A program made the position numbers and the translations under genes. The notes beneath the pieces are model-generated. The model saw nothing but the letters and a program-made list of their open reading frames with translations, was not told the origin of the DNA and made no database searches. A stretch of DNA of 64,000 nucleotides. Source: Orenia metallireducens. GTDB lineage: Bacteria > Bacillota > Halanaerobiia > Halobacteroidales > Halobacteroidaceae. Positions 2,234 through 24,219 of the stretch are shown here, piece by piece. The first letter of the stretch is position 1; every line of letters starts with the position of its first letter. The stretch covers positions 431,753-495,752 of the forward strand of contig NZ_LWDV01000009.1 of assembly GCF_001693735.1 (NCBI RefSeq), read 5' to 3'.

Positions 2234-4372
2234 TTATAATCCTAACTCTTTTCGTTTCTTTTCAATATGGTCGACATAGATTTGGACTGTCTTTTCAGCA
2301 TCCATCTCTACTACTACTTTTCCTAATCCAAGTGTTTCTGTAGTTTCGGTAAGGGTCTTAACTACTACATCACTACCAGTAATTGATGGTACTGGAGCAA
2401 CATGTACCAACCAACCTAGTGCAACAGCAGTACAAGCATCGGCAACTGCTTTTTGTTCTAAGTATTCTGGTGCTCCAATTACTAATGGTAATTTATTAGT
2501 ATCTACTTCTAAGGTGTCAGCAATCTCCTTAGCAGTTTGAGTCATTTTACCGATATCTACACAAGCACCATAGCTTAATACTGGAGGGATTCCTAATTGT
2601 TTACAGACGGCTTTTAGTCCCTCACCACATTCTTCGGCAGCTTTAGGGTTAGTTAATCCTGTGTATTCCATAACAGCAGAAGTACAACCACCAGAAAGAA
2701 CTAAGATATCATTTTCTATTAATCCTTTGGTAATCTTGAAGATGTTACTTCCACCTTGACCATAACGAGCAGTTGTACATCCAACGATAGTAGCTATACC
2801 TTTAATATTACCATTAGCAATTTGGTCAATCAGTGGCTTGAAGTCTCCTCCAAGAGCTTCTTTAACTGATTCTGTGCTGAACCCAACGGTACAATCAGAA
2901 GTATGTGGGGGGATATAGGTTTCTCTATTAGAACCTTTACGTTCTTTAAAGGATTCAATAGCTTTATTCAAGGCTTTTTCTGCTTGTTCTTTCATCTTCT
3001 CAGGAACAAAGTCTAAGGTTTCGGTTCCTTGTAATTTAATAACAGGATGAGTACTTAGTAGCTTAGTACCAAACTTTTTAGCGAAAAGTGGCATAGTTGG
3101 TACAGTACAGTTATAATCGAACATAAACATATCGACTACTCCTGTAGCTAATAAGTATTCTTGGCTCAACCATTCACCTTCCTGTCCACCATATCCTTTC
3201 TGATTATGGGTACCTTCATAATTCATTAATTGTTGTCCTTCACAGACATGACCAAGAATCTGGATACCCTTTGCACCTGCATCTTTGGCTTTCTGTTGCC
3301 ATTCATCACTAGAGGCAAGGTCGATTGCAACATGGGCAAGTAATGGCATATGACCATTAGTAACAACATTAATCATATTTTCATCTAAAAGACCCATATT
3401 CTGTTTCTTTTCAGTTATTTCTTGAGTTCCCATCAGGATTTCTTGAAGGATATCTAATAAGAATAATCCTTGATATTCATTAGCAACTCCTAAACGGACA
3501 GATCTTAATAAGAATTCAATTGGGTCAGAGTTGAAGTTGGTCATACATTGGGTTTGAGAATAAGCAACCTCACTATATCCACCACCTGGGAATAATCCAA
3601 GCTTTCTCCATAATTCTTTACGCTTAGCAGGAGCAAAGGCTTCAACGGCTTTAGATTCAATATGATAAGGACTATGAATATCATCTATAACCCAGTTAGC
3701 AAAATCAACTGCTACTTCTTCAATGGACTTACTTGAGTCTAGACCTGCCATCTCAGCATATTTCTTTAATTTTTCAGGGTCACGAATCTTCAATCCGCTC
3801 TCAGGATGTTTACCAGCAGCTTTTAAGGTTCTAGCAGCTTGTTGAGCGTGGAAGATATTGGCTGATGTACCGATAGTAACATGGCGGTACATAAAGTTTC
3901 TAGCAACCATAGTATGAGCATCAACACCACAGGTTCCACGCGGAGCTTTTGGATGAATACGACAAGGACCATTAGCACATAGTTGACAGGATAGTCCTTC
4001 TACACAGAATTTACATTGGATAGGCTGTTGTTCACTAAAGCGGTCAAAGACATTGGTCATCTCTGCCTTATTAACGACCTGATACATTTCTCTCATAGCA
4101 GGATCGATGATGACATTCATTGGGTAGCCATCTTTACCTTGATCATCCTTTTGAATATGCTCTCTCTGCCATTTATGTAGCTCTTCCATAGAAGGTGACT
4201 TTTCAAAATCATTATAATCTATCTTAAGGTCGTTATGAATATCACCATGGAGTTCAGGATCGTTATAATCTTTATTGGATAATTGAGAACCGATTGTTTT
4301 ATCAGCTTGGGATTTTCCTTGCATTCTTTTAGCACTTCGTTCATAAGAGTTTTTTACATCTTTATCTGACAT
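2234..4372 (-). CDS. cooS: Anaerobic Ni-Fe carbon monoxide dehydrogenase, catalytic subunit
   Basis: This enzyme interconverts CO + H2O and CO2 + 2H+ + 2e- at a Ni-4Fe-4S C-cluster. All expected C-cluster ligands are visible: H341 (NGHMPLL), C377 (GHVCEG), C422 (DYNCTVP), C532 (GCTT), C563 (GGCTSAVME) and C604 (GACVDIGK). B-cluster cysteines are C129, C132, C137 and C148. The D-cluster pair is C120-x2-C123, and residue 128, where the common CX7C form has its second cysteine, is serine. At 712 residues it is longer than usual (about 630-670) because of a hydrophilic N-terminal extension of about 80 residues. No cooC, cooF, acsB or hydrogenase gene is adjacent, so it is a solitary CODH. It is transcribed divergently from the hemerythrin gene. 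RBS AAAGGAGG. Confidence 0.97.
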   Translation of the reverse strand: MSDKDVKNSYERSAKRMQGKSQADKTIGSQLSNKDYNDPELHGDIHNDLKIDYNDFEKSPSMEELHKWQREHIQKDDQGKDGYPMNVIIDPAMREMYQVVNKAEMTNVFDRFSEQQPIQCKFCVEGLSCQLCANGPCRIHPKAPRGTCGVDAHTMVARNFMYRHVTIGTSANIFHAQQAARTLKAAGKHPESGLKIRDPEKLKKYAEMAGLDSSKSIEEVAVDFANWVIDDIHSPYHIESKAVEAFAPAKRKELWRKLGLFPGGGYSEVAYSQTQCMTNFNSDPIEFLLRSVRLGVANEYQGLFLLDILQEILMGTQEITEKKQNMGLLDENMINVVTNGHMPLLAHVAIDLASSDEWQQKAKDAGAKGIQILGHVCEGQQLMNYEGTHNQKGYGGQEGEWLSQEYLLATGVVDMFMFDYNCTVPTMPLFAKKFGTKLLSTHPVIKLQGTETLDFVPEKMKEQAEKALNKAIESFKERKGSNRETYIPPHTSDCTVGFSTESVKEALGGDFKPLIDQIANGNIKGIATIVGCTTARYGQGGSNIFKITKGLIENDILVLSGGCTSAVMEYTGLTNPKAAEECGEGLKAVCKQLGIPPVLSYGACVDIGKMTQTAKEIADTLEVDTNKLPLVIGAPEYLEQKAVADACTAVALGWLVHVAPVPSITGSDVVVKTLTETTETLGLGKVVVEMDAEKTVQIYVDHIEKKRKELGL

Positions 4373-4442: not shown

Positions 4443-4513
4443 GAATATACAAAGAAAAAGTTATTTAAAAAATAATTAATGTTAATAGGTAATTATTGAA
4501 AGGGGGTATAGAA

Positions 4514-5272
4514 GTGAAAATTAATAAAATAGAATTGAAGGAATTATTAAAAAAATTGAATTCAGGCGAGGATGTTAGTGGAGTTAAAGAAGAAGCTAGG
4601 GCATTATTAGAAAGAATCAGTCCTAAGGAGCTATCTGAGACTGAACAGGAGCTGATTAATGAAGGTTTGCCAGAAACTGAATTACGCCATTTATGTGAAG
4701 CCCATATTGAAGTGATGGCAGAAGAACTAAAAGCATTAAAGGCAGAAGTGGAGGAAGGTCATCCCTTACAGGTTTTAATTGTTGAACATGATGAGATATT
4801 AAAGGTCTTAGATAGATTAGAGCAAGCAAATAAAGTAATCCAAGAGATGAATAGTTATGATTGTAACAATGATGTGTTTAAAGAGTTAAAGGAGGTATCT
4901 TATCTATTACTAGAGACTGAGAACCATCATAAGCGAGAGGAAGAAGCTTTATTTCCAGAGGTAGATTATACAGGAGTAACAGGACCAACGAGAATTATGA
5001 AGATGGAGCATGAAGATTTGTGGCCTAGAAAAGAGAAGATTGATTATTTAACTGAGCATATTGAAAAGATAGAATTTGATGATTTTAAAGAAGAGTTGAA
5101 AGATAATACGGAATATTTAATTTTAATATTAAGAGATCATATTTTTAAAGAGAATCATATTTTATATCCAACAGCTAAAGAGGTAATACCAGAAGGTAGA
5201 TGGGAAGAGATTAAAAAGAATAGTGATAAGATTGGATATTGTTCTTTTACACCTAAGGACAATAAGAAGTAA
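4514..5272 (+). CDS. DUF438 / hemerythrin HHE di-iron protein
   Basis: The N-terminal 75 residues match the DUF438 type (helical, with KELLKKLNSGEDVSGVKEEA and LSETEQELINEGLP). A hemerythrin HHE four-helix bundle follows from about residue 85. Its likely metal ligands lie in VEHDEIL, ENHHKREEEALFP, MEHEDLW, and RDHIFKENHILYP. Such proteins bind a di-iron centre and are tied to O2, NO or iron-sulfur repair responses; the ligand here is not known. The GTG at 4514 fits the GGGGG ribosome-binding site at 4502-4506 better than the TTG at 4496. An FNR-type box sits upstream, and flavodoxin follows on the same strand. Confidence 0.85.
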   Translation: MKINKIELKELLKKLNSGEDVSGVKEEARALLERISPKELSETEQELINEGLPETELRHLCEAHIEVMAEELKALKAEVEEGHPLQVLIVEHDEILKVLDRLEQANKVIQEMNSYDCNNDVFKELKEVSYLLLETENHHKREEEALFPEVDYTGVTGPTRIMKMEHEDLWPRKEKIDYLTEHIEKIEFDDFKEELKDNTEYLILILRDHIFKENHILYPTAKEVIPEGRWEEIKKNSDKIGYCSFTPKDNKK

Positions 5273-9814: not shown

Positions 9815-11413
9815 ATGTATCTTATGAATTTGAAAATCAAACATAAAATCTTATTAAGCATAACTCTGGGGTTGATCGTTGCATTGTTAAGTGTTGGAAT
9901 AGTGGTTAATTTACAATTCAATAATTTTGTAGAGAAGCAAAATGTCAATTTAGAAGATCTTAAAATTGAGATATTAACTGCTATAGGGGTTACTTTTATC
10001 ATTATATCTCTTCTAATTACCTTTATTATGCTAAGGTTATCTAATTACATAAGCAAAGGCTTGGCTAAGATTACATATGGGATGAAGCAGTTAGCTACAG
10101 GAGATTTAACTATCAGATTAGAGGTTAATAAGCAGGATGAATTTGGACAGCTTTATCAGTCTTTTAATGAGAGTGTTAAAGAGCAGAGTATTTTAGTCAA
10201 TAAGATATTAGAAGATGCAGAGAGTTTATTATTATATAGTGAGATATTATCTGCCAGTACTGAGGAAGGTAATGCAGCTATCGAGACAACTAATCAATTG
10301 ATTGAAAGTATGTCTGCTAATATTCAAGAGATATCTGCTAGTGGTGAAGAGGTAACCAGTTTTGCAGAAGAGTCTACAGCTCAGACCCAATCAGGTAAAG
10401 AGAATATGGTAGAGACAGTAAGTAGGATGGAAGAGATTAATCAGAAAGTCAAAGTTACTGTTGATTTAATCAAAGAGTTAAATAGCAATAGTGAAGAGAT
10501 AGGTGGTATTATAGAGCTAATTACTAATGTTGCTGACCAAACAAATCTATTAGCATTAAATGCGGCAATAGAAGCTGCTAGAGCAGGAGAGCATGGTCAA
10601 GGCTTTACAGTAGTTGCAGAAGAGATTAGAGAGTTAGCTGAAGAGACCACTAAAGCTACTGTTAACGTTAAGAGGTTGATTGAGAATACTAGAATAAACT
10701 CTCAAAATGTGATTAAGGCTATTAAAGAGGTAGAAGAGAAGACTCTAGAAGGCCAAACTATTACAGAGAGTACTAATCAAATATTTGCTCAGATAGAAGA
10801 AGCCAGCGAAGAGACTACAGCACAGATTGAACAGATAGCTTATGGTGCTCAAGATTTAGCTAATGATAGTGAAGCATTGGTTTTAGCAGCCAAGGATATA
10901 GATAATATGTCCCAAGAGATTAATAATTCATCTAATGAATTAAAGGATAAAGCTAATGATTTAAAATCTCTAGTGGCTAAATTTGTCTTAGAAGATAAGG
11001 TAGCTGTGACCAAATGGAATGATAAGTATAAGGTTGGAGTAGAGAAGATTGATGAACAGCATAAGGGAATATTTGAAAGGGCAAATTACTTATTAGATGC
11101 CCACAAGAATCAAAGTAGTGAAAAGGATATTGAAGAAGTAATGGATTTCTTGGCAAATTATATCGATAAGCATTTTAGGGAAGAAGAAGAGATACAACGA
11201 AAGTATGAGTATCCAGATTATGAAAATCATAAGAAGATACATCACAATTTTGAAAGTAAGGTTAAGGAGGTTATAGCAGATTATAAAAATTCTACGGTAA
11301 AGGTCACTTCATTGATGAAGTTAAATAAGATGGTAACAGGTTGGTTAATAGAGCATATTAAAAGGGAAGATCAGAAGTTAGCTGAGTATATCAATAATAG
11401 TCAGATATCATAG
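9815..11413 (+). CDS. Chemoreceptor with C-terminal bacteriohemerythrin (O2 sensor)
   Basis: A 532-residue membrane chemoreceptor. TM1 (about 11-30) and TM2 (about 48-70) are separated by a loop too short to hold a sensor domain. HAMP, then an MCP signalling domain with tip [20 protein letters not shown] follow. From about residue 392 there is a bacteriohemerythrin domain with the ligand motifs [28 protein letters not shown] and IEHIKREDQ. Sensing is therefore cytoplasmic: the di-iron site at the C-terminus is expected to bind O2, as known for DcrH-type receptors. It probably steers the cell away from oxygen. Context with hemerythrin, flavodoxin and flavodiiron genes supports this. Confidence 0.95.
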
Positions 11414-19259: not shown

Positions 19260-19866
19260 AATATACCAACTCCTTAATAAAATCATCATATAATAATTCT
19301 GTACGAAAAGATATTAATTATACACCATTAATTAAAGTTAGTCACTTATAGATTCTAAAAATAAGAGGTTAACTTTAATCTAATCTAAAGTTAGATCTTT
19401 ATTAACATATAGATTGTAGTATAAATTTAAGTCAAATTATTTGACTATGTAGCAATTTATATATGAAAAATTTTCTTTATAATCCCAAAGAAATTGATTT
19501 AAAAATATTAGTGCTAAGATAGTTTATTTACATTTTATGGAAATAAACAGAAAAATTCACTCTTATACTGGATTATTAATTTAATGTTTAAAATAAAATG
19601 AAGGATAATTGAATTGTTCGTACAATATATAAAAAGTAGAAATTAATGGAATAATGTCCATTAAGCAATAGATTATAGTAAAATTAAGCTATTTCGTAGA
19701 GAAAAAATAAAGAATATATATAGTGTTTTTATAATCTTTTAGATATATTTATGGTTTAGTTGTATTTTTGGAAGGTCTTCAGAGAGTAATGACTCAATGA
19801 TATTTTATGGTTTGCTTGGCTAATAATAGGACTTATGAGATTTTAAAATCAGTGGGAGGAAGTGAA
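19260..19866. other. Long divergent intergenic region
   Basis: About 600 bases, very A+T-rich, between the Mrr-like and histidine-kinase genes. A short element TTAGTCACTTATAG near 19338 resembles three others in the window (see findings). The in-frame ATG at 19807 lacks a ribosome-binding site. Nothing else is seen. Confidence 0.5.
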
Positions 19867-21345
19867 ATGGAAGAAGTTTTAATTTTTTTAATTAATAATT
19901 TTCCTGGATTAGCTATAATTCTTGATGATGAATACAGAATTCAAAGAGGAAATAAACAATCTTATGACCTATATAAAAAAGTAAAAGGAGAGACAGTGGA
20001 TCCTCATCAATTAAGGAATCAAGATTTGAGTAATTTTCATCCATTAGGTAAAGTAATAGGCTTAAAGGCATTATCTACAGGTAAACCTAATTATGGTTAC
20101 ATAGAGTATAATTGGGGGAATATGCAGAAGAATATCTTGTATTGTGATATTCCAGCAAAATTAAAGGATGGTTCTCAAGGGGTAGTGGTCTTAAATTTTG
20201 ACTTTCCTAAGCCAATTAAAGATTTAAAAGGTATAGTTGATGCTTTTTATCAGAACTATGATATCTATTTTAGTCAGTTAGAGATAAGTTTATTTGATAC
20301 AAAGGGTAAAGTTTTATATGTTAATAAAGCAGTTTTAGATAATGCAGGGTTGGAAAATGATGATGAATTATTAGGAGAGAATTTATTTAAAAGCGAAAAA
20401 AGTTATATCTCTAAAGAGAATGGAAATAGTATTTTGGGTGATTTTATCTCAAAGGGAGATTTTTTACATACTAAATTATATATTAGTAAAGAGAGTAAGA
20501 TAAATAATGGTTGTCAATCTAGGGTGCTTGAAGTTATTTGCTTTCCTATTGAGATAGAGAGTCATCTTTTAGGATCAATCTGTATTGGTATGAACTTAGG
20601 ACAGATTAGCAAATATTCAAATCAAGTTAAACAATTTGAGCGACTTGAAAATATTAGAGAGATGGCTTTTCGGGTTATTCATGAAATCAGAAATCCTCTA
20701 CAGGAGATATTGGCTGTAGCAGAGCTTGGTAAAATAAAATCGAATCAGGATGAAATTGAGTCTTATTTTGAGCATATTAAATCTGGAATAAGCTGGATTA
20801 ATGACTTATTAAATGACATTGTCCAAATATCAGATCCTAGTTCTTTGAGTTTAGAAGAGGTAGAACTGGATATAGTTTGTCAAGAGATATTAGATGATAT
20901 TTCCAAAAATTATAAGGACATCTGCTGGGAATTTTCAATTGAAAGTATGAAAACAGTCTTAGATAAAGATTTGTTTAAAGAGATTATAATACATTTAGTG
21001 GATAATGCTATAGATGCTTTAGCTAATAAAGCTGAAGAGAAGAAGATTACAATAAATTCCTCATTGCAAGGAGGAGATATTCTATTTAGTATCTATAATT
21101 CTGGAAATAAAATTCCAGAGAGGATTCAAGATAGTATCTTTGATCCCTTTACTTCAACTAAAGGGAATAATGGGACAGGCTTAGGACTAACAGTAGTTTA
21201 TTATATTATCACTAAAGTATATCAAGGGGATATTTGGTTTGAAAGTAATGATGATGGGACCACCTTCTTCTTTAAAATAAAAAGATATACAGAAAAAGTA
21301 AAGGTTCCTTCTATAAATAATACCGATTATAAAGGAATTAAATAA
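19867..21345 (+). CDS. Soluble PAS-type sensor histidine kinase
   Basis: A 492-residue kinase without TM helices. Two PAS-like segments occupy about 1-115 and 130-250. The HisKA phosphoacceptor is H272 in VIHEIRNPLQE. The HATPase part has an N-box (HLVDNAIDAL), and a G-box, FDPFTSTKGNNGTGLGLTVV. It autophosphorylates and would pass phosphate to a response regulator, but none is encoded nearby, so it is an orphan kinase. The architecture resembles cytoplasmic sporulation-type kinases. GGGAGGAAG places the start at ATG 19867. Confidence 0.88.
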   Translation: MEEVLIFLINNFPGLAIILDDEYRIQRGNKQSYDLYKKVKGETVDPHQLRNQDLSNFHPLGKVIGLKALSTGKPNYGYIEYNWGNMQKNILYCDIPAKLKDGSQGVVVLNFDFPKPIKDLKGIVDAFYQNYDIYFSQLEISLFDTKGKVLYVNKAVLDNAGLENDDELLGENLFKSEKSYISKENGNSILGDFISKGDFLHTKLYISKESKINNGCQSRVLEVICFPIEIESHLLGSICIGMNLGQISKYSNQVKQFERLENIREMAFRVIHEIRNPLQEILAVAELGKIKSNQDEIESYFEHIKSGISWINDLLNDIVQISDPSSLSLEEVELDIVCQEILDDISKNYKDICWEFSIESMKTVLDKDLFKEIIIHLVDNAIDALANKAEEKKITINSSLQGGDILFSIYNSGNKIPERIQDSIFDPFTSTKGNNGTGLGLTVVYYIITKVYQGDIWFESNDDGTTFFFKIKRYTEKVKVPSINNTDYKGIK

Positions 21346-21572: not shown

Positions 21573-22532
21573 ATGGCTTATAGATGTGAGGAGCAGTTAA
21601 AAGTTAAAGCTAATCAATTTCTTAAAAAGCTAAAAGAAGAGGGAATAGAAGGCGAGATTAAGCAGATTCGTGACTATTTGATTAAGTTAGCTATTATAGT
21701 TGAAGATGAGGCATGTGGGTATTTAAACCTCTATTATAGCCCTAAAAAGGATAAATATACCCTAAAGACTAATGAGTTAAAGCAAAAAGAAGTTAAAAAA
21801 AAGGTATTAATAACATGGAATTGTGGCAACCTTAGCTCTAAACTAGCAACTGAAGAAGAGTATAAAATATATGTTGATGGCTCTTATTTAGATGGAAAGA
21901 TAGGTTATGGATTAGTAGTTTTGAAAGATGATAAGGTTATTGATGAATTATCAGGCTATGTTAGTGACCCTGATGCTCAAGATTCTAGGCAAGTAGGTGG
22001 TGAATTAGTAGCAACTAAAGAAGCAATTAGGTGGTGTCAGAGTAGAGGTATTAAGAGAGTTGCTATTTACTATGACTTAGATAATATTAAGAAATGGGCT
22101 ACTGGAGAGTATAAAACTCGTAAGCCTTTAACTCAAAATTTTAAAGAGTTTATAGATAGTACCAACATTAAAATTAGCTGGCATAAGGTTAAGGCTCATA
22201 CAGGAGTGAAGTGGAATGAGCGAGCCGATGAATTGGCTAAAGCAGGAGCAAATAGTCAAGGTGCTACAAAGAAGAATGGTTTAGTAGATGATTTGGAGGA
22301 GAAAGCTAAGAAGTTTAGTGATTACTTACAAAGAAGAGGATATTCTGTAAATTATAAAGGTATTTATAATTCACAAGCAGCTAAGTTAAGTTTAGATGAT
22401 GGCTTTCAGGATATAGGTCATTTGAATATTTATAATACTAAAAAGCTTCATTTAGTGCCAAAATATCATGAGTTAAGGGATAAATCTAAGCAAAGTGAAT
22501 TAGAGGAATTGTGGCAGGAGTTTTTGGGTTGA
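21573..22532 (+). CDS. RNase HI with a duplicated flanking domain
   Basis: A 319-residue protein. The RNase HI core (about 96-227) degrades RNA in RNA-DNA hybrids. Its active-site set looks complete: D102 (YVDGSYL), E144 (GGELVAT), D168 (IYYDLDN), H209 (VKAHTG) and D219 (ERADELA). Segments before (6-75) and after (238-312) resemble each other: each has an A..F...L helix, a G.LN+Y strand and a YHEL or TNEL end. The core is thus sandwiched between two copies of an unrecognised small domain, possibly for hybrid binding. RBS AGGAGG. Monocistronic. Confidence 0.88.
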   Translation: MAYRCEEQLKVKANQFLKKLKEEGIEGEIKQIRDYLIKLAIIVEDEACGYLNLYYSPKKDKYTLKTNELKQKEVKKKVLITWNCGNLSSKLATEEEYKIYVDGSYLDGKIGYGLVVLKDDKVIDELSGYVSDPDAQDSRQVGGELVATKEAIRWCQSRGIKRVAIYYDLDNIKKWATGEYKTRKPLTQNFKEFIDSTNIKISWHKVKAHTGVKWNERADELAKAGANSQGATKKNGLVDDLEEKAKKFSDYLQRRGYSVNYKGIYNSQAAKLSLDDGFQDIGHLNIYNTKKLHLVPKYHELRDKSKQSELEELWQEFLG

Positions 22533-22715
22533 AAATAAGCTCCTGTTTGATAGAACTTGTTAGTTATTAGCAGGTGTTATTTTTATATTTATAGCTTCTA
22601 TTTATAATAAAAATCTATTGATGATTATTTTATTTATGATAAAATAAGAACAAATTAGATAATAATAGGTTTTATGGTAATGATCTAGGCTGAATGCTAA
22701 TAAGGAGGTATAGTT

Positions 22716-22784
22716 ATGGGAGATGAGGTAATGTCTCAAGAAGAGATTGATGCATTAATCGAACAAATGAAGAATAAAGACTAA
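22716..22784 (+). CDS. 22-residue peptide resembling the CheY-binding end of FliM
   Basis: ATG at 22716 follows AAGGAGG (22702-22708) at ideal spacing. The peptide begins MGDEVMSQEEIDALIEQM and ends KNKD. The flagellar switch protein FliM starts with a conserved LSQxEIDALL segment that docks phospho-CheY, and this peptide matches it, down to the MGD start known from enterobacterial FliM. It ends there, with no switch domain after it. A terminator at 22803 closes the unit, so it is an independent gene. Function is unknown; competition for CheY is an inference. Confidence 0.65.
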   Translation: MGDEVMSQEEIDALIEQMKNKD

Positions 22785-22802: not shown

Positions 22803-22836
22803 AAACTGTACCTTAAAACAGGTATAGTTTTTTTTA
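22803..22836 (+). terminator. Rho-independent terminator of the micro-gene
   Basis: Stem AAACTGTACC / GGTATAGTTT (one G-T pair) with an 8-base loop and a long T-run, 19 bases after the 22-codon gene. Confidence 0.8.
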
Positions 22837-22962: not shown

Positions 22963-24219
22963 ATGAAGTTAAAGTATGGAGAAGAAAAAGTAGCTTTAAA
23001 TCTAGATTTGCTAGGAAAAGAGGTAGAAACATTATTGCCTAATGAGAAGGAGGGTGTAACAGATCCTTTAGCAGCTGTTAAAGCTAGTTTAGCTAACCCT
23101 ATCAAATCTTTGCCCTTAGATAAATTAGTAAAGGAGAAGTGTCCTAAAAAGGTAGTCATAGTAGTCAATGATGTTAGCAGATTAACACCTTATGATTATA
23201 TGTTACCACCTTTATTAGAGAAGTTAGAGAAGGGTGGAGTAAAGAGAGAAGCTATTACCTTTATTATCGCTACAGGTATCCATGAACCTAATACTGAAGA
23301 GCAGAATAGAAGAATCTTTGGTGATGAGATAGTTAATAATTATCGCTTAATCTCCCATGATCCTGATAATAATCTAGTCAATTTAGGAGAGCTAAGTTCT
23401 GGGAATACTTTATTGCTCAATAAAGAGGTTGTAGAGGCAGACTTTTTAATTACTACTGGAGTAATAACAGCCCATTATTTTGCAGGGTTTTCAGGAGGGC
23501 GTAAATCTATCTTACCAGGGGTAGCAGGAAGGGAGAGTATCCAAAGAAACCATGCCCATATGGTTAATCTACTTGGCAATCTGCCTACGATAGAAGATAA
23601 TCCTGTCAGCCTAGAGATGATTGAAGCAGCTAATAAAGTGGGAGTAGATTTTATTTTGAATGTGGTTACAAATAGTAAAAAAGAGATAGTAGAGGTAGTA
23701 GCAGGTGATTTAGAAGCAGCTTGGTATCAAGGGGTAAAGACTTCTGCTCAGATGTATCATGTTCCAATTAAAGAGAAAGTAGATGTAGCAATAGTCAGTG
23801 CAGGGGGATATCCAAAGGATATTAATATCTATCAGGCTCAAAAGGCTTTAGATAATGCAGATTATGCTGTTAAAGATGGTGGAACGATAGTACTTTTAGC
23901 AGAATGTCGAGCAGGTTTAGGAGAGGATGTTTTTGAGGAGTGGTTAAATACTGCTAAAAAACCTGAAGATAATATAGAAAGAATTAAAGAACGCTTTGTA
24001 ATTGGTGGTCATAAGGCCTTTGCTATTAGTAAGGTGGCTTTGAGTAAGGAGTTTATTTTAATCTCTGAATTCAATCAAGAGATAACAGAGTTGATGTTTG
24101 CTAAGAAGATGAATAATTTAGATGAGGCATTATCTTATTTAGATAAAAAATACAATAATAAATATAGTGCTATTATTATGCCCCAAGGAGGATTAACAGT
24201 ACCAGTTATTAAAAGCTAA
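22963..24219 (+). CDS. LarA-family nickel-pincer-type racemase/epimerase (DUF2088)
   Basis: A 418-residue member of the lactate racemase family. The catalytic and cofactor-bearing residues known from LarA have counterparts here: H107 in ATGIHEPN, H171 and K181 in HYFAGFSGGRKSILPG, and H197 or H199 in QRNHAHM. The lysine carries the nickel-pincer nucleotide in LarA. Substrate may be lactate or another 2-hydroxyacid. No larB, larC or larE cofactor genes are adjacent, so they must be elsewhere if the enzyme uses the pincer. RBS GGAGGAG. Expressed alone or with the following membrane-protein gene. Confidence 0.85.
   Translation: MKLKYGEEKVALNLDLLGKEVETLLPNEKEGVTDPLAAVKASLANPIKSLPLDKLVKEKCPKKVVIVVNDVSRLTPYDYMLPPLLEKLEKGGVKREAITFIIATGIHEPNTEEQNRRIFGDEIVNNYRLISHDPDNNLVNLGELSSGNTLLLNKEVVEADFLITTGVITAHYFAGFSGGRKSILPGVAGRESIQRNHAHMVNLLGNLPTIEDNPVSLEMIEAANKVGVDFILNVVTNSKKEIVEVVAGDLEAAWYQGVKTSAQMYHVPIKEKVDVAIVSAGGYPKDINIYQAQKALDNADYAVKDGGTIVLLAECRAGLGEDVFEEWLNTAKKPEDNIERIKERFVIGGHKAFAISKVALSKEFILISEFNQEITELMFAKKMNNLDEALSYLDKKYNNKYSAIIMPQGGLTVPVIKS

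What the first reader, a model, noticed from the sequence alone, without database searches (positions are those of the whole stretch)
22716..22784. A 22-residue stand-alone gene that mimics the CheY-docking end of FliM
The peptide MGDEVMSQEEIDALIEQM... carries the FliM motif LSQxEIDALL and nothing else. It has its own strong ribosome-binding site and terminator. A free peptide of this kind could bind phospho-CheY and compete with the flagellar motor, or act as an adaptor. The window has three chemoreceptor-like genes but no flagellar operon, so this is not a truncated fliM beside its neighbours. I know of no described gene like this.
Basis: partly seen in the sequence, partly recalled or inferred. 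Interest (0 to 1): 0.75.

Follow-up and report, generated by a model that had tools for sequence, protein, structure and literature searches.

The report
Free-standing FliM-tip peptide gene
A family of salt-loving bacteria carries a conserved 22-residue gene that encodes only the CheY-docking tip of the flagellar switch proteins FliM and FliY, so these cells probably make a free peptide that competes with their own flagellar motor for the chemotaxis signal.

Summary
Window 22716-22784 (+) is a 22-codon ORF (MGDEVMSQEEIDALIEQMKNKD) with a strong RBS, a promoter-like site and an intrinsic terminator. The ORF is conserved as a stand-alone gene in six of eight genomes of its family (Halobacteroidaceae, judged from named relatives) and in none of 51 other genomes of its class. 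It shows purifying selection, and nothing downstream resembles fliM or fliY. It occupies three settings: the same RNase H-larA interval in Orenia and Halonatronum; another orphan locus in G005; and, in two Natroniella-type genomes, the flagellar operon between fliL and fliM. The host also has full-length FliM and FliY, each with its own docking motif. Its only sequence relative in the PDB is a 20-residue FliM chain (4IGA chain B), from memory a CheY complex. Best explanation: a cytosolic microprotein that docks on phospho-CheY and competes with FliM and FliY. Expression, binding and effect on swimming are inferred, not shown. I found no described stand-alone gene of this kind in the open-licence papers searched.

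The parts
22618..22645 (+). candidate sigma-A promoter, TTGATG-16 bp-TAAAAT with extended -10 TG
   Evidence: the same sequence is in the orthologous locus of G001 and the -10 region ATTTATGATAAAATA is also kept in G004. The number of such sites in the region is no more than chance, so the conservation is the evidence
22702..22708 (+). ribosome-binding site (AAGGAGG)
   Evidence: direct reading; RBS in G001, G004, G005, G006, G007 too
22716..22784 (+). 22-aa gene MGDEVMSQEEIDALIEQMKNKD, the FliM/FliY CheY-docking motif alone
22803..22830 (+). intrinsic terminator, 11-bp stem plus T-run
   Evidence: 0.0 expected; hairpins with changed sequence at the same place in G001 and G004, read by eye
21573..22532 (+). 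upstream neighbour, RNase H-domain protein; marks the conserved locus
   Evidence: Pfam PF00075; syntenic in G001, G002, G004
22963..24219 (+). downstream neighbour, lactate racemase (LarA)-like protein; marks the conserved locus
   Evidence: Pfam PF09861 and PF21113; syntenic

Best explanation
The ORF is a real, translated microprotein gene. The peptide stays in the cytosol, is unstructured when free, and folds on the alpha4-beta5-alpha5 face of CheY-P as the N-terminus of FliM does. Because it has no C-ring-binding part, CheY-P held by it cannot signal to the motor. It therefore buffers or competes for CheY-P against the docking tips of FliM and FliY, raising the CheY-P threshold for switching and probably shielding CheY-P from FliY, the motor-located phosphatase. 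Orphan copies (Orenia, Halonatronum, G005) have their own promoter-like site and can be expressed independently of the flagellar operon; the Natroniella-type copies would be co-expressed with fliM. Shown: gene structure, conservation, motif identity, operon link in two genomes, presence of intact FliM and FliY. Inferred: translation, CheY-P binding, competition.
For: Stand-alone orthologues in 6 of 8 family genomes with ten invariant residues including S-Q-x-E-I-D-x-L. Purifying selection: G000/G001 have 9 nucleotide differences but 2 residue changes (P=0.002), G001/G004 have 12 and 3 (0 of 3000 random placements as low), G006/G007 have 5, all synonymous (P=0.004). In G006 and G007 the gene sits between fliL and fliM with its own RBS. 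The only PDB sequence match is 4IGA chain B, a 20-residue FliM chain, DVLSQEEINQLIEAL against EVMSQEEIDALIEQM. The motif LSQxEIDALL is the CheY-P site of FliM and FliY (PMC6700473, PMC7595845). The host has full-length FliM and FliY with motifs, CheC-type repeats in FliY and in separate 211-aa and about 160-180-aa proteins, and no CheZ.
Against: No expression, binding or phenotype data. The PDB match is weak statistically (E=0.31) because the query is short. The gene is missing in G002 and G003, which keep fliM and fliY, so it is not essential for the motor. A 22-aa peptide could be unstable or too scarce to titrate CheY-P; micromolar FliM-peptide affinity (general knowledge) would need a high copy number to compete.
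Confidence: 0.6

Rival explanations
1. The peptide binds CheY but its main role is positive: it stabilises the active conformation, promoting phosphorylation or slowing dephosphorylation, so it primes rather than sequesters CheY.
For: FliM N-peptide shifts a constitutively active CheY mutant into the active conformation (PMC4838244, PMC7355467), and bound FliM-N influences the phosphorylation site (PMC7355467). The same docking surface would be used.
Against: Nothing in the sequence separates this from competition; both follow from one binding event.
Confidence: 0.15
2. The peptide docks on another partner (a different CheY-like receiver protein, or C-ring subunits) as an adaptor, not on the chemotaxis CheY.
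For: Orphan loci with their own promoter-like site outside the flagellar operon. FliM tips are known to bind CheY-like proteins other than CheY (Cle proteins, PMC5677366).
Against: The residues conserved are those of the CheY-P docking consensus, and two genomes keep the gene in the flagellar operon.
Confidence: 0.12
3. A regulatory upstream or leader ORF, or small RNA, whose peptide is not the functional product.
For: In Natroniella-type genomes it immediately precedes fliM; in the window a terminator follows it.
Against: Residue-level purifying selection with free synonymous change; the same peptide in three different contexts; in the window the ORF ends in its own terminator about 130 bp before the next gene; no Rfam family.
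Confidence: 0.06
4. A degraded fliM or fliY copy, or a chance ORF.
For: The sequence resembles the tip of FliM/FliY; its score splits between the FliM and FliY profiles.
Against: No fliM/fliY similarity beyond the 22 codons, short form held in six genomes, purifying selection, 0 of 100 shuffles with the motif.
Confidence: 0.02

Closest known systems
N-terminal CheY-binding region of FliM (FliM-N; e.g. the 20-residue FliM chain 4IGA_B)
   Same: Same motif, same length as the excised peptides used in crystallography, same distance of the motif from the initiator Met
   Different: Here it is a complete gene product with no FliG- or FliN-binding domains, beside an intact fliM elsewhere in the genome
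N-terminal CheY-P-binding region of FliY (B. subtilis type)
   Same: FliY of the family starts the same way (G006 FliY: MSDEVLSQDEISALL), and the window peptide scores closer to FliY than to FliM
   Different: No CheC-type phosphatase or FliN-like domain
C-terminal CheY-binding peptide of CheZ (from memory)
   Same: A short SQxxxDxLL-type helix docking on the same face of CheY
   Different: Tethered to a phosphatase; no CheZ in this order
CheF of archaea and Cle proteins of Caulobacter
   Same: Extra proteins acting at the CheY-motor interface (PMC9126983, PMC5677366)
   Different: CheF is an adaptor with its own domains and Cle proteins are CheY-like receivers; neither is a free FliM-tip peptide

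Membership tests
FliM (PF02154) | N-terminal LSQxEIDALL-type CheY-P site | tested here: met
   motif MSQEEIDALI
FliM (PF02154) | FliM middle domain and FliN-like C-terminal domain | tested here: not met
   22 aa only; no FliM Pfam match; no residual similarity downstream
FliY (CheC-type phosphatase of the C ring) | CheC repeats plus FliN-like C-terminus | tested here: not met
   22 aa only; the genome's real FliY is at C8:310837
CheZ | PF04344 phosphatase domain with C-terminal CheY peptide | tested here: not met
   no CheZ in 13 genomes of the order; the ORF has no room for it
CheY-P-binding peptide (functional class) | physical binding to CheY-P | not testable with these tools
   needs ITC, NMR or pull-down
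Genuine protein-coding gene | conserved frame, RBS and synonymous-biased change across relatives | tested here: met

The most novel reading that the evidence does not exclude
Halobacteroidaceae carry a dedicated microprotein, ancestral to the family, that acts as a genetically encoded soluble decoy for CheY-P: a layer of chemotaxis control between kinase and motor that uses the motor's own docking tip as a free ligand and can be expressed independently of the flagellum.
Probability: 0.5. Interest if true: 0.82.

Novelty: new variant of a known kind. Interest (0 to 1): 0.72.

Why it matters
CheY-P control is described through kinases, phosphatases, sinks and the motor itself. A conserved gene that encodes only the motor's docking peptide would be a natural competitive ligand for CheY-P, one of the smallest chemotaxis regulators known, and directly testable with synthetic 22-mers. 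It also shows how a short linear motif can become a gene of its own, one that standard gene callers may miss because of its size.

Tried and rejected
Chance ORF: rejected. Degraded fliM/fliY: rejected. Known RNA element: only sub-threshold Rfam noise. Phage or plasmid origin: no match in phages or plasmids. The strict gene pattern gave 0 in viral contigs. Wider distribution: the strict gene pattern over the genome collection returned only Orenia metallireducens, Natroniella acetigena and Halonatronum saccharophilum. Profile scans of 299 and 398 phylum genomes listed no other free-standing copy; weaker rows were not all listed. The short frames listed outside the family were one at a contig edge (G248), a broken fliY just after fliM (G127) and a split FliY (G026). 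Trying to decide whether the peptide derives from fliM or fliY gave no clear answer: window, G001 and G004 lean to FliY, G005 to FliM, G006/G007 undecided.

Full report
What is there. The ORF at 22716-22784 (+) reads MGDEVMSQEEIDALIEQMKNKD, with AAGGAGG ending 7 bases before the ATG. A promoter-like site TTGATG-16-TAAAAT is at 22618-22645; such sites are no commoner here than in shuffles, but this one is identical in the orthologous locus of G001. An 11-bp terminator hairpin with a T-run is at 22803-22830, with 0.0 expected in shuffles. Hairpins with changed sequences stand at the same place in G001 and G004 (read by eye, the consensus scan does not list them). The gene lies between an RNase H-domain gene and a larA-like gene. 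Pfam finds no FliM match for the peptide; from general knowledge the Pfam FliM model starts after the tip. The docking-motif pattern occurs once in 64 kb and in none of 100 shuffles.

Conservation. A protein search of relatives found near-identical 22-codon ORFs in G001 (same genus; its contig matches a named Orenia metallireducens record in length) and G004 (likewise Halonatronum saccharophilum), both between the same two neighbours, and more distant ones in G005, G006 and G007. The G005, G006 and G007 forms are MSDDEVLSQDEIDDLVNDLVDDD, MSDEVLSQEEIDELIKAKTEEE and MSDEVLSQEEIDELIKAKTEE. Ten columns are invariant among the six: M1 D3 E4 V5 S7 Q8 E10 I11 D12 L14. A profile from them searched 13 genomes of the order and 59 of the class: six free-standing genes, all in family f1, with open frames of 22-43 codons; nearly all other strong matches are full-length FliM (about 330 aa) and FliY (about 370-450 aa). 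I read f1 as Halobacteroidaceae because the three named relatives belong there. Scans of 299 and 398 phylum genomes listed no other free-standing copy.

Selection. G000 against G001: 9 nucleotide differences, 2 residue changes, P=0.002 under random placement. G001 against G004: 12 and 3, 0 of 3000 placements as low. G006 against G007: 5 differences, all synonymous, P=0.004. This is the pattern of a translated gene. The test treats sequences pairwise and ignores codon bias, so the P values are rough.

History. In a FliM tree, f1 splits into (G003, G005), (G006, G007) and (G004,(G002,(G000,G001))), and the gene is present in all three parts, absent only in G003 and G002. One gain at the base of the family and two losses, with moves between loci, is the simplest reading; independent gains are not excluded. 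In G002 the RNase H-larA interval is intact but the gene is missing from it. In G006 and G007 the gene is in the flagellar operon, 13 bp after fliL and about 65 bp before fliM. Most other members of the family have an untranslated AT-rich gap of about 75-120 bp between fliL and fliM, possibly a remnant of that position; this is only a suggestion.

Relation to fliM/fliY. The genome has intact fliM (MSSNRVLSQNEIDSLLEAL...) and fliY (MNDALSQEEINALLNGG...) in a complete flagellar operon on another contig. Similarity between the locus and FliM/FliY ends with the 22 codons. Profile scores place the window, G001 and G004 peptides nearer FliY, G005 nearer FliM, G006/G007 undecided.

Function. LSQxEIDALL is the CheY-P-binding site of FliM and FliY; the FliM tip is disordered until CheY-P binds, and B. 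subtilis CheY-P binds both tips (PMC6700473, PMC7595845). The only PDB sequence match is the 20-residue FliM chain 4IGA_B; that it is a Thermotoga peptide in complex with CheY is from memory. The host has FliY with two CheC-type repeats, separate proteins with CheC repeats (CheC-like, 211 aa; probably CheX, 157-184 aa) and no CheZ. A free peptide with this motif is therefore expected to occupy CheY-P and to compete with FliM and FliY. Whether the outcome is mainly sequestration, shielding from FliY phosphatase or allosteric priming cannot be told from sequence. I put 0.6 on competition, 0.15 on priming, 0.12 on another partner, 0.06 on a non-peptide role, 0.02 on artefact, the rest on things not thought of.

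Novelty. Eight literature searches of the open-licence library turned up FliM peptides only as laboratory reagents. Subscription journals are mostly absent from that library, so this is not proof that nothing has been described. By function it would be a new chemotaxis component built from a known binding motif, so I file it as a new variant of a known kind. It is not a member of FliM or FliY: their defining domains were tested and are absent.

Noticed in passing
L008:1483-1551 and L010:1486-1551 (G006, G007): The same microprotein gene lies between fliL and fliM in the flagellar operon of two Natroniella-type genomes.
   Followed up: yes
L001:1266-1383; L040:1364-1485; L043, L049, L051 upstream of fliM: Several family members have an untranslated AT-rich gap of about 75-120 bp between fliL and fliM where Natroniella-type genomes have the gene; it may be a relic of the ancestral position.
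   Followed up: partly
window 9815-11413: Chemoreceptor with HAMP and MCP-signal domains and a C-terminal hemerythrin domain; a hemerythrin/DUF438 gene (4496-5272) and a Prismane/CO dehydrogenase family gene (2234-4372) are nearby, suggesting an oxygen or nitrosative-stress sensing neighbourhood.
   Followed up: no
window 19807-21345: Orphan PAS histidine kinase upstream of the RNase H gene; a similar open frame precedes the RNase H gene in G002 (L068:362-1324, partial).
   Followed up: no
L030:1501-1548 (G001:C42:20321): G001 has an additional SQxEID-type match in an open frame of 430 codons besides its FliM and FliY; not identified.
   Followed up: no
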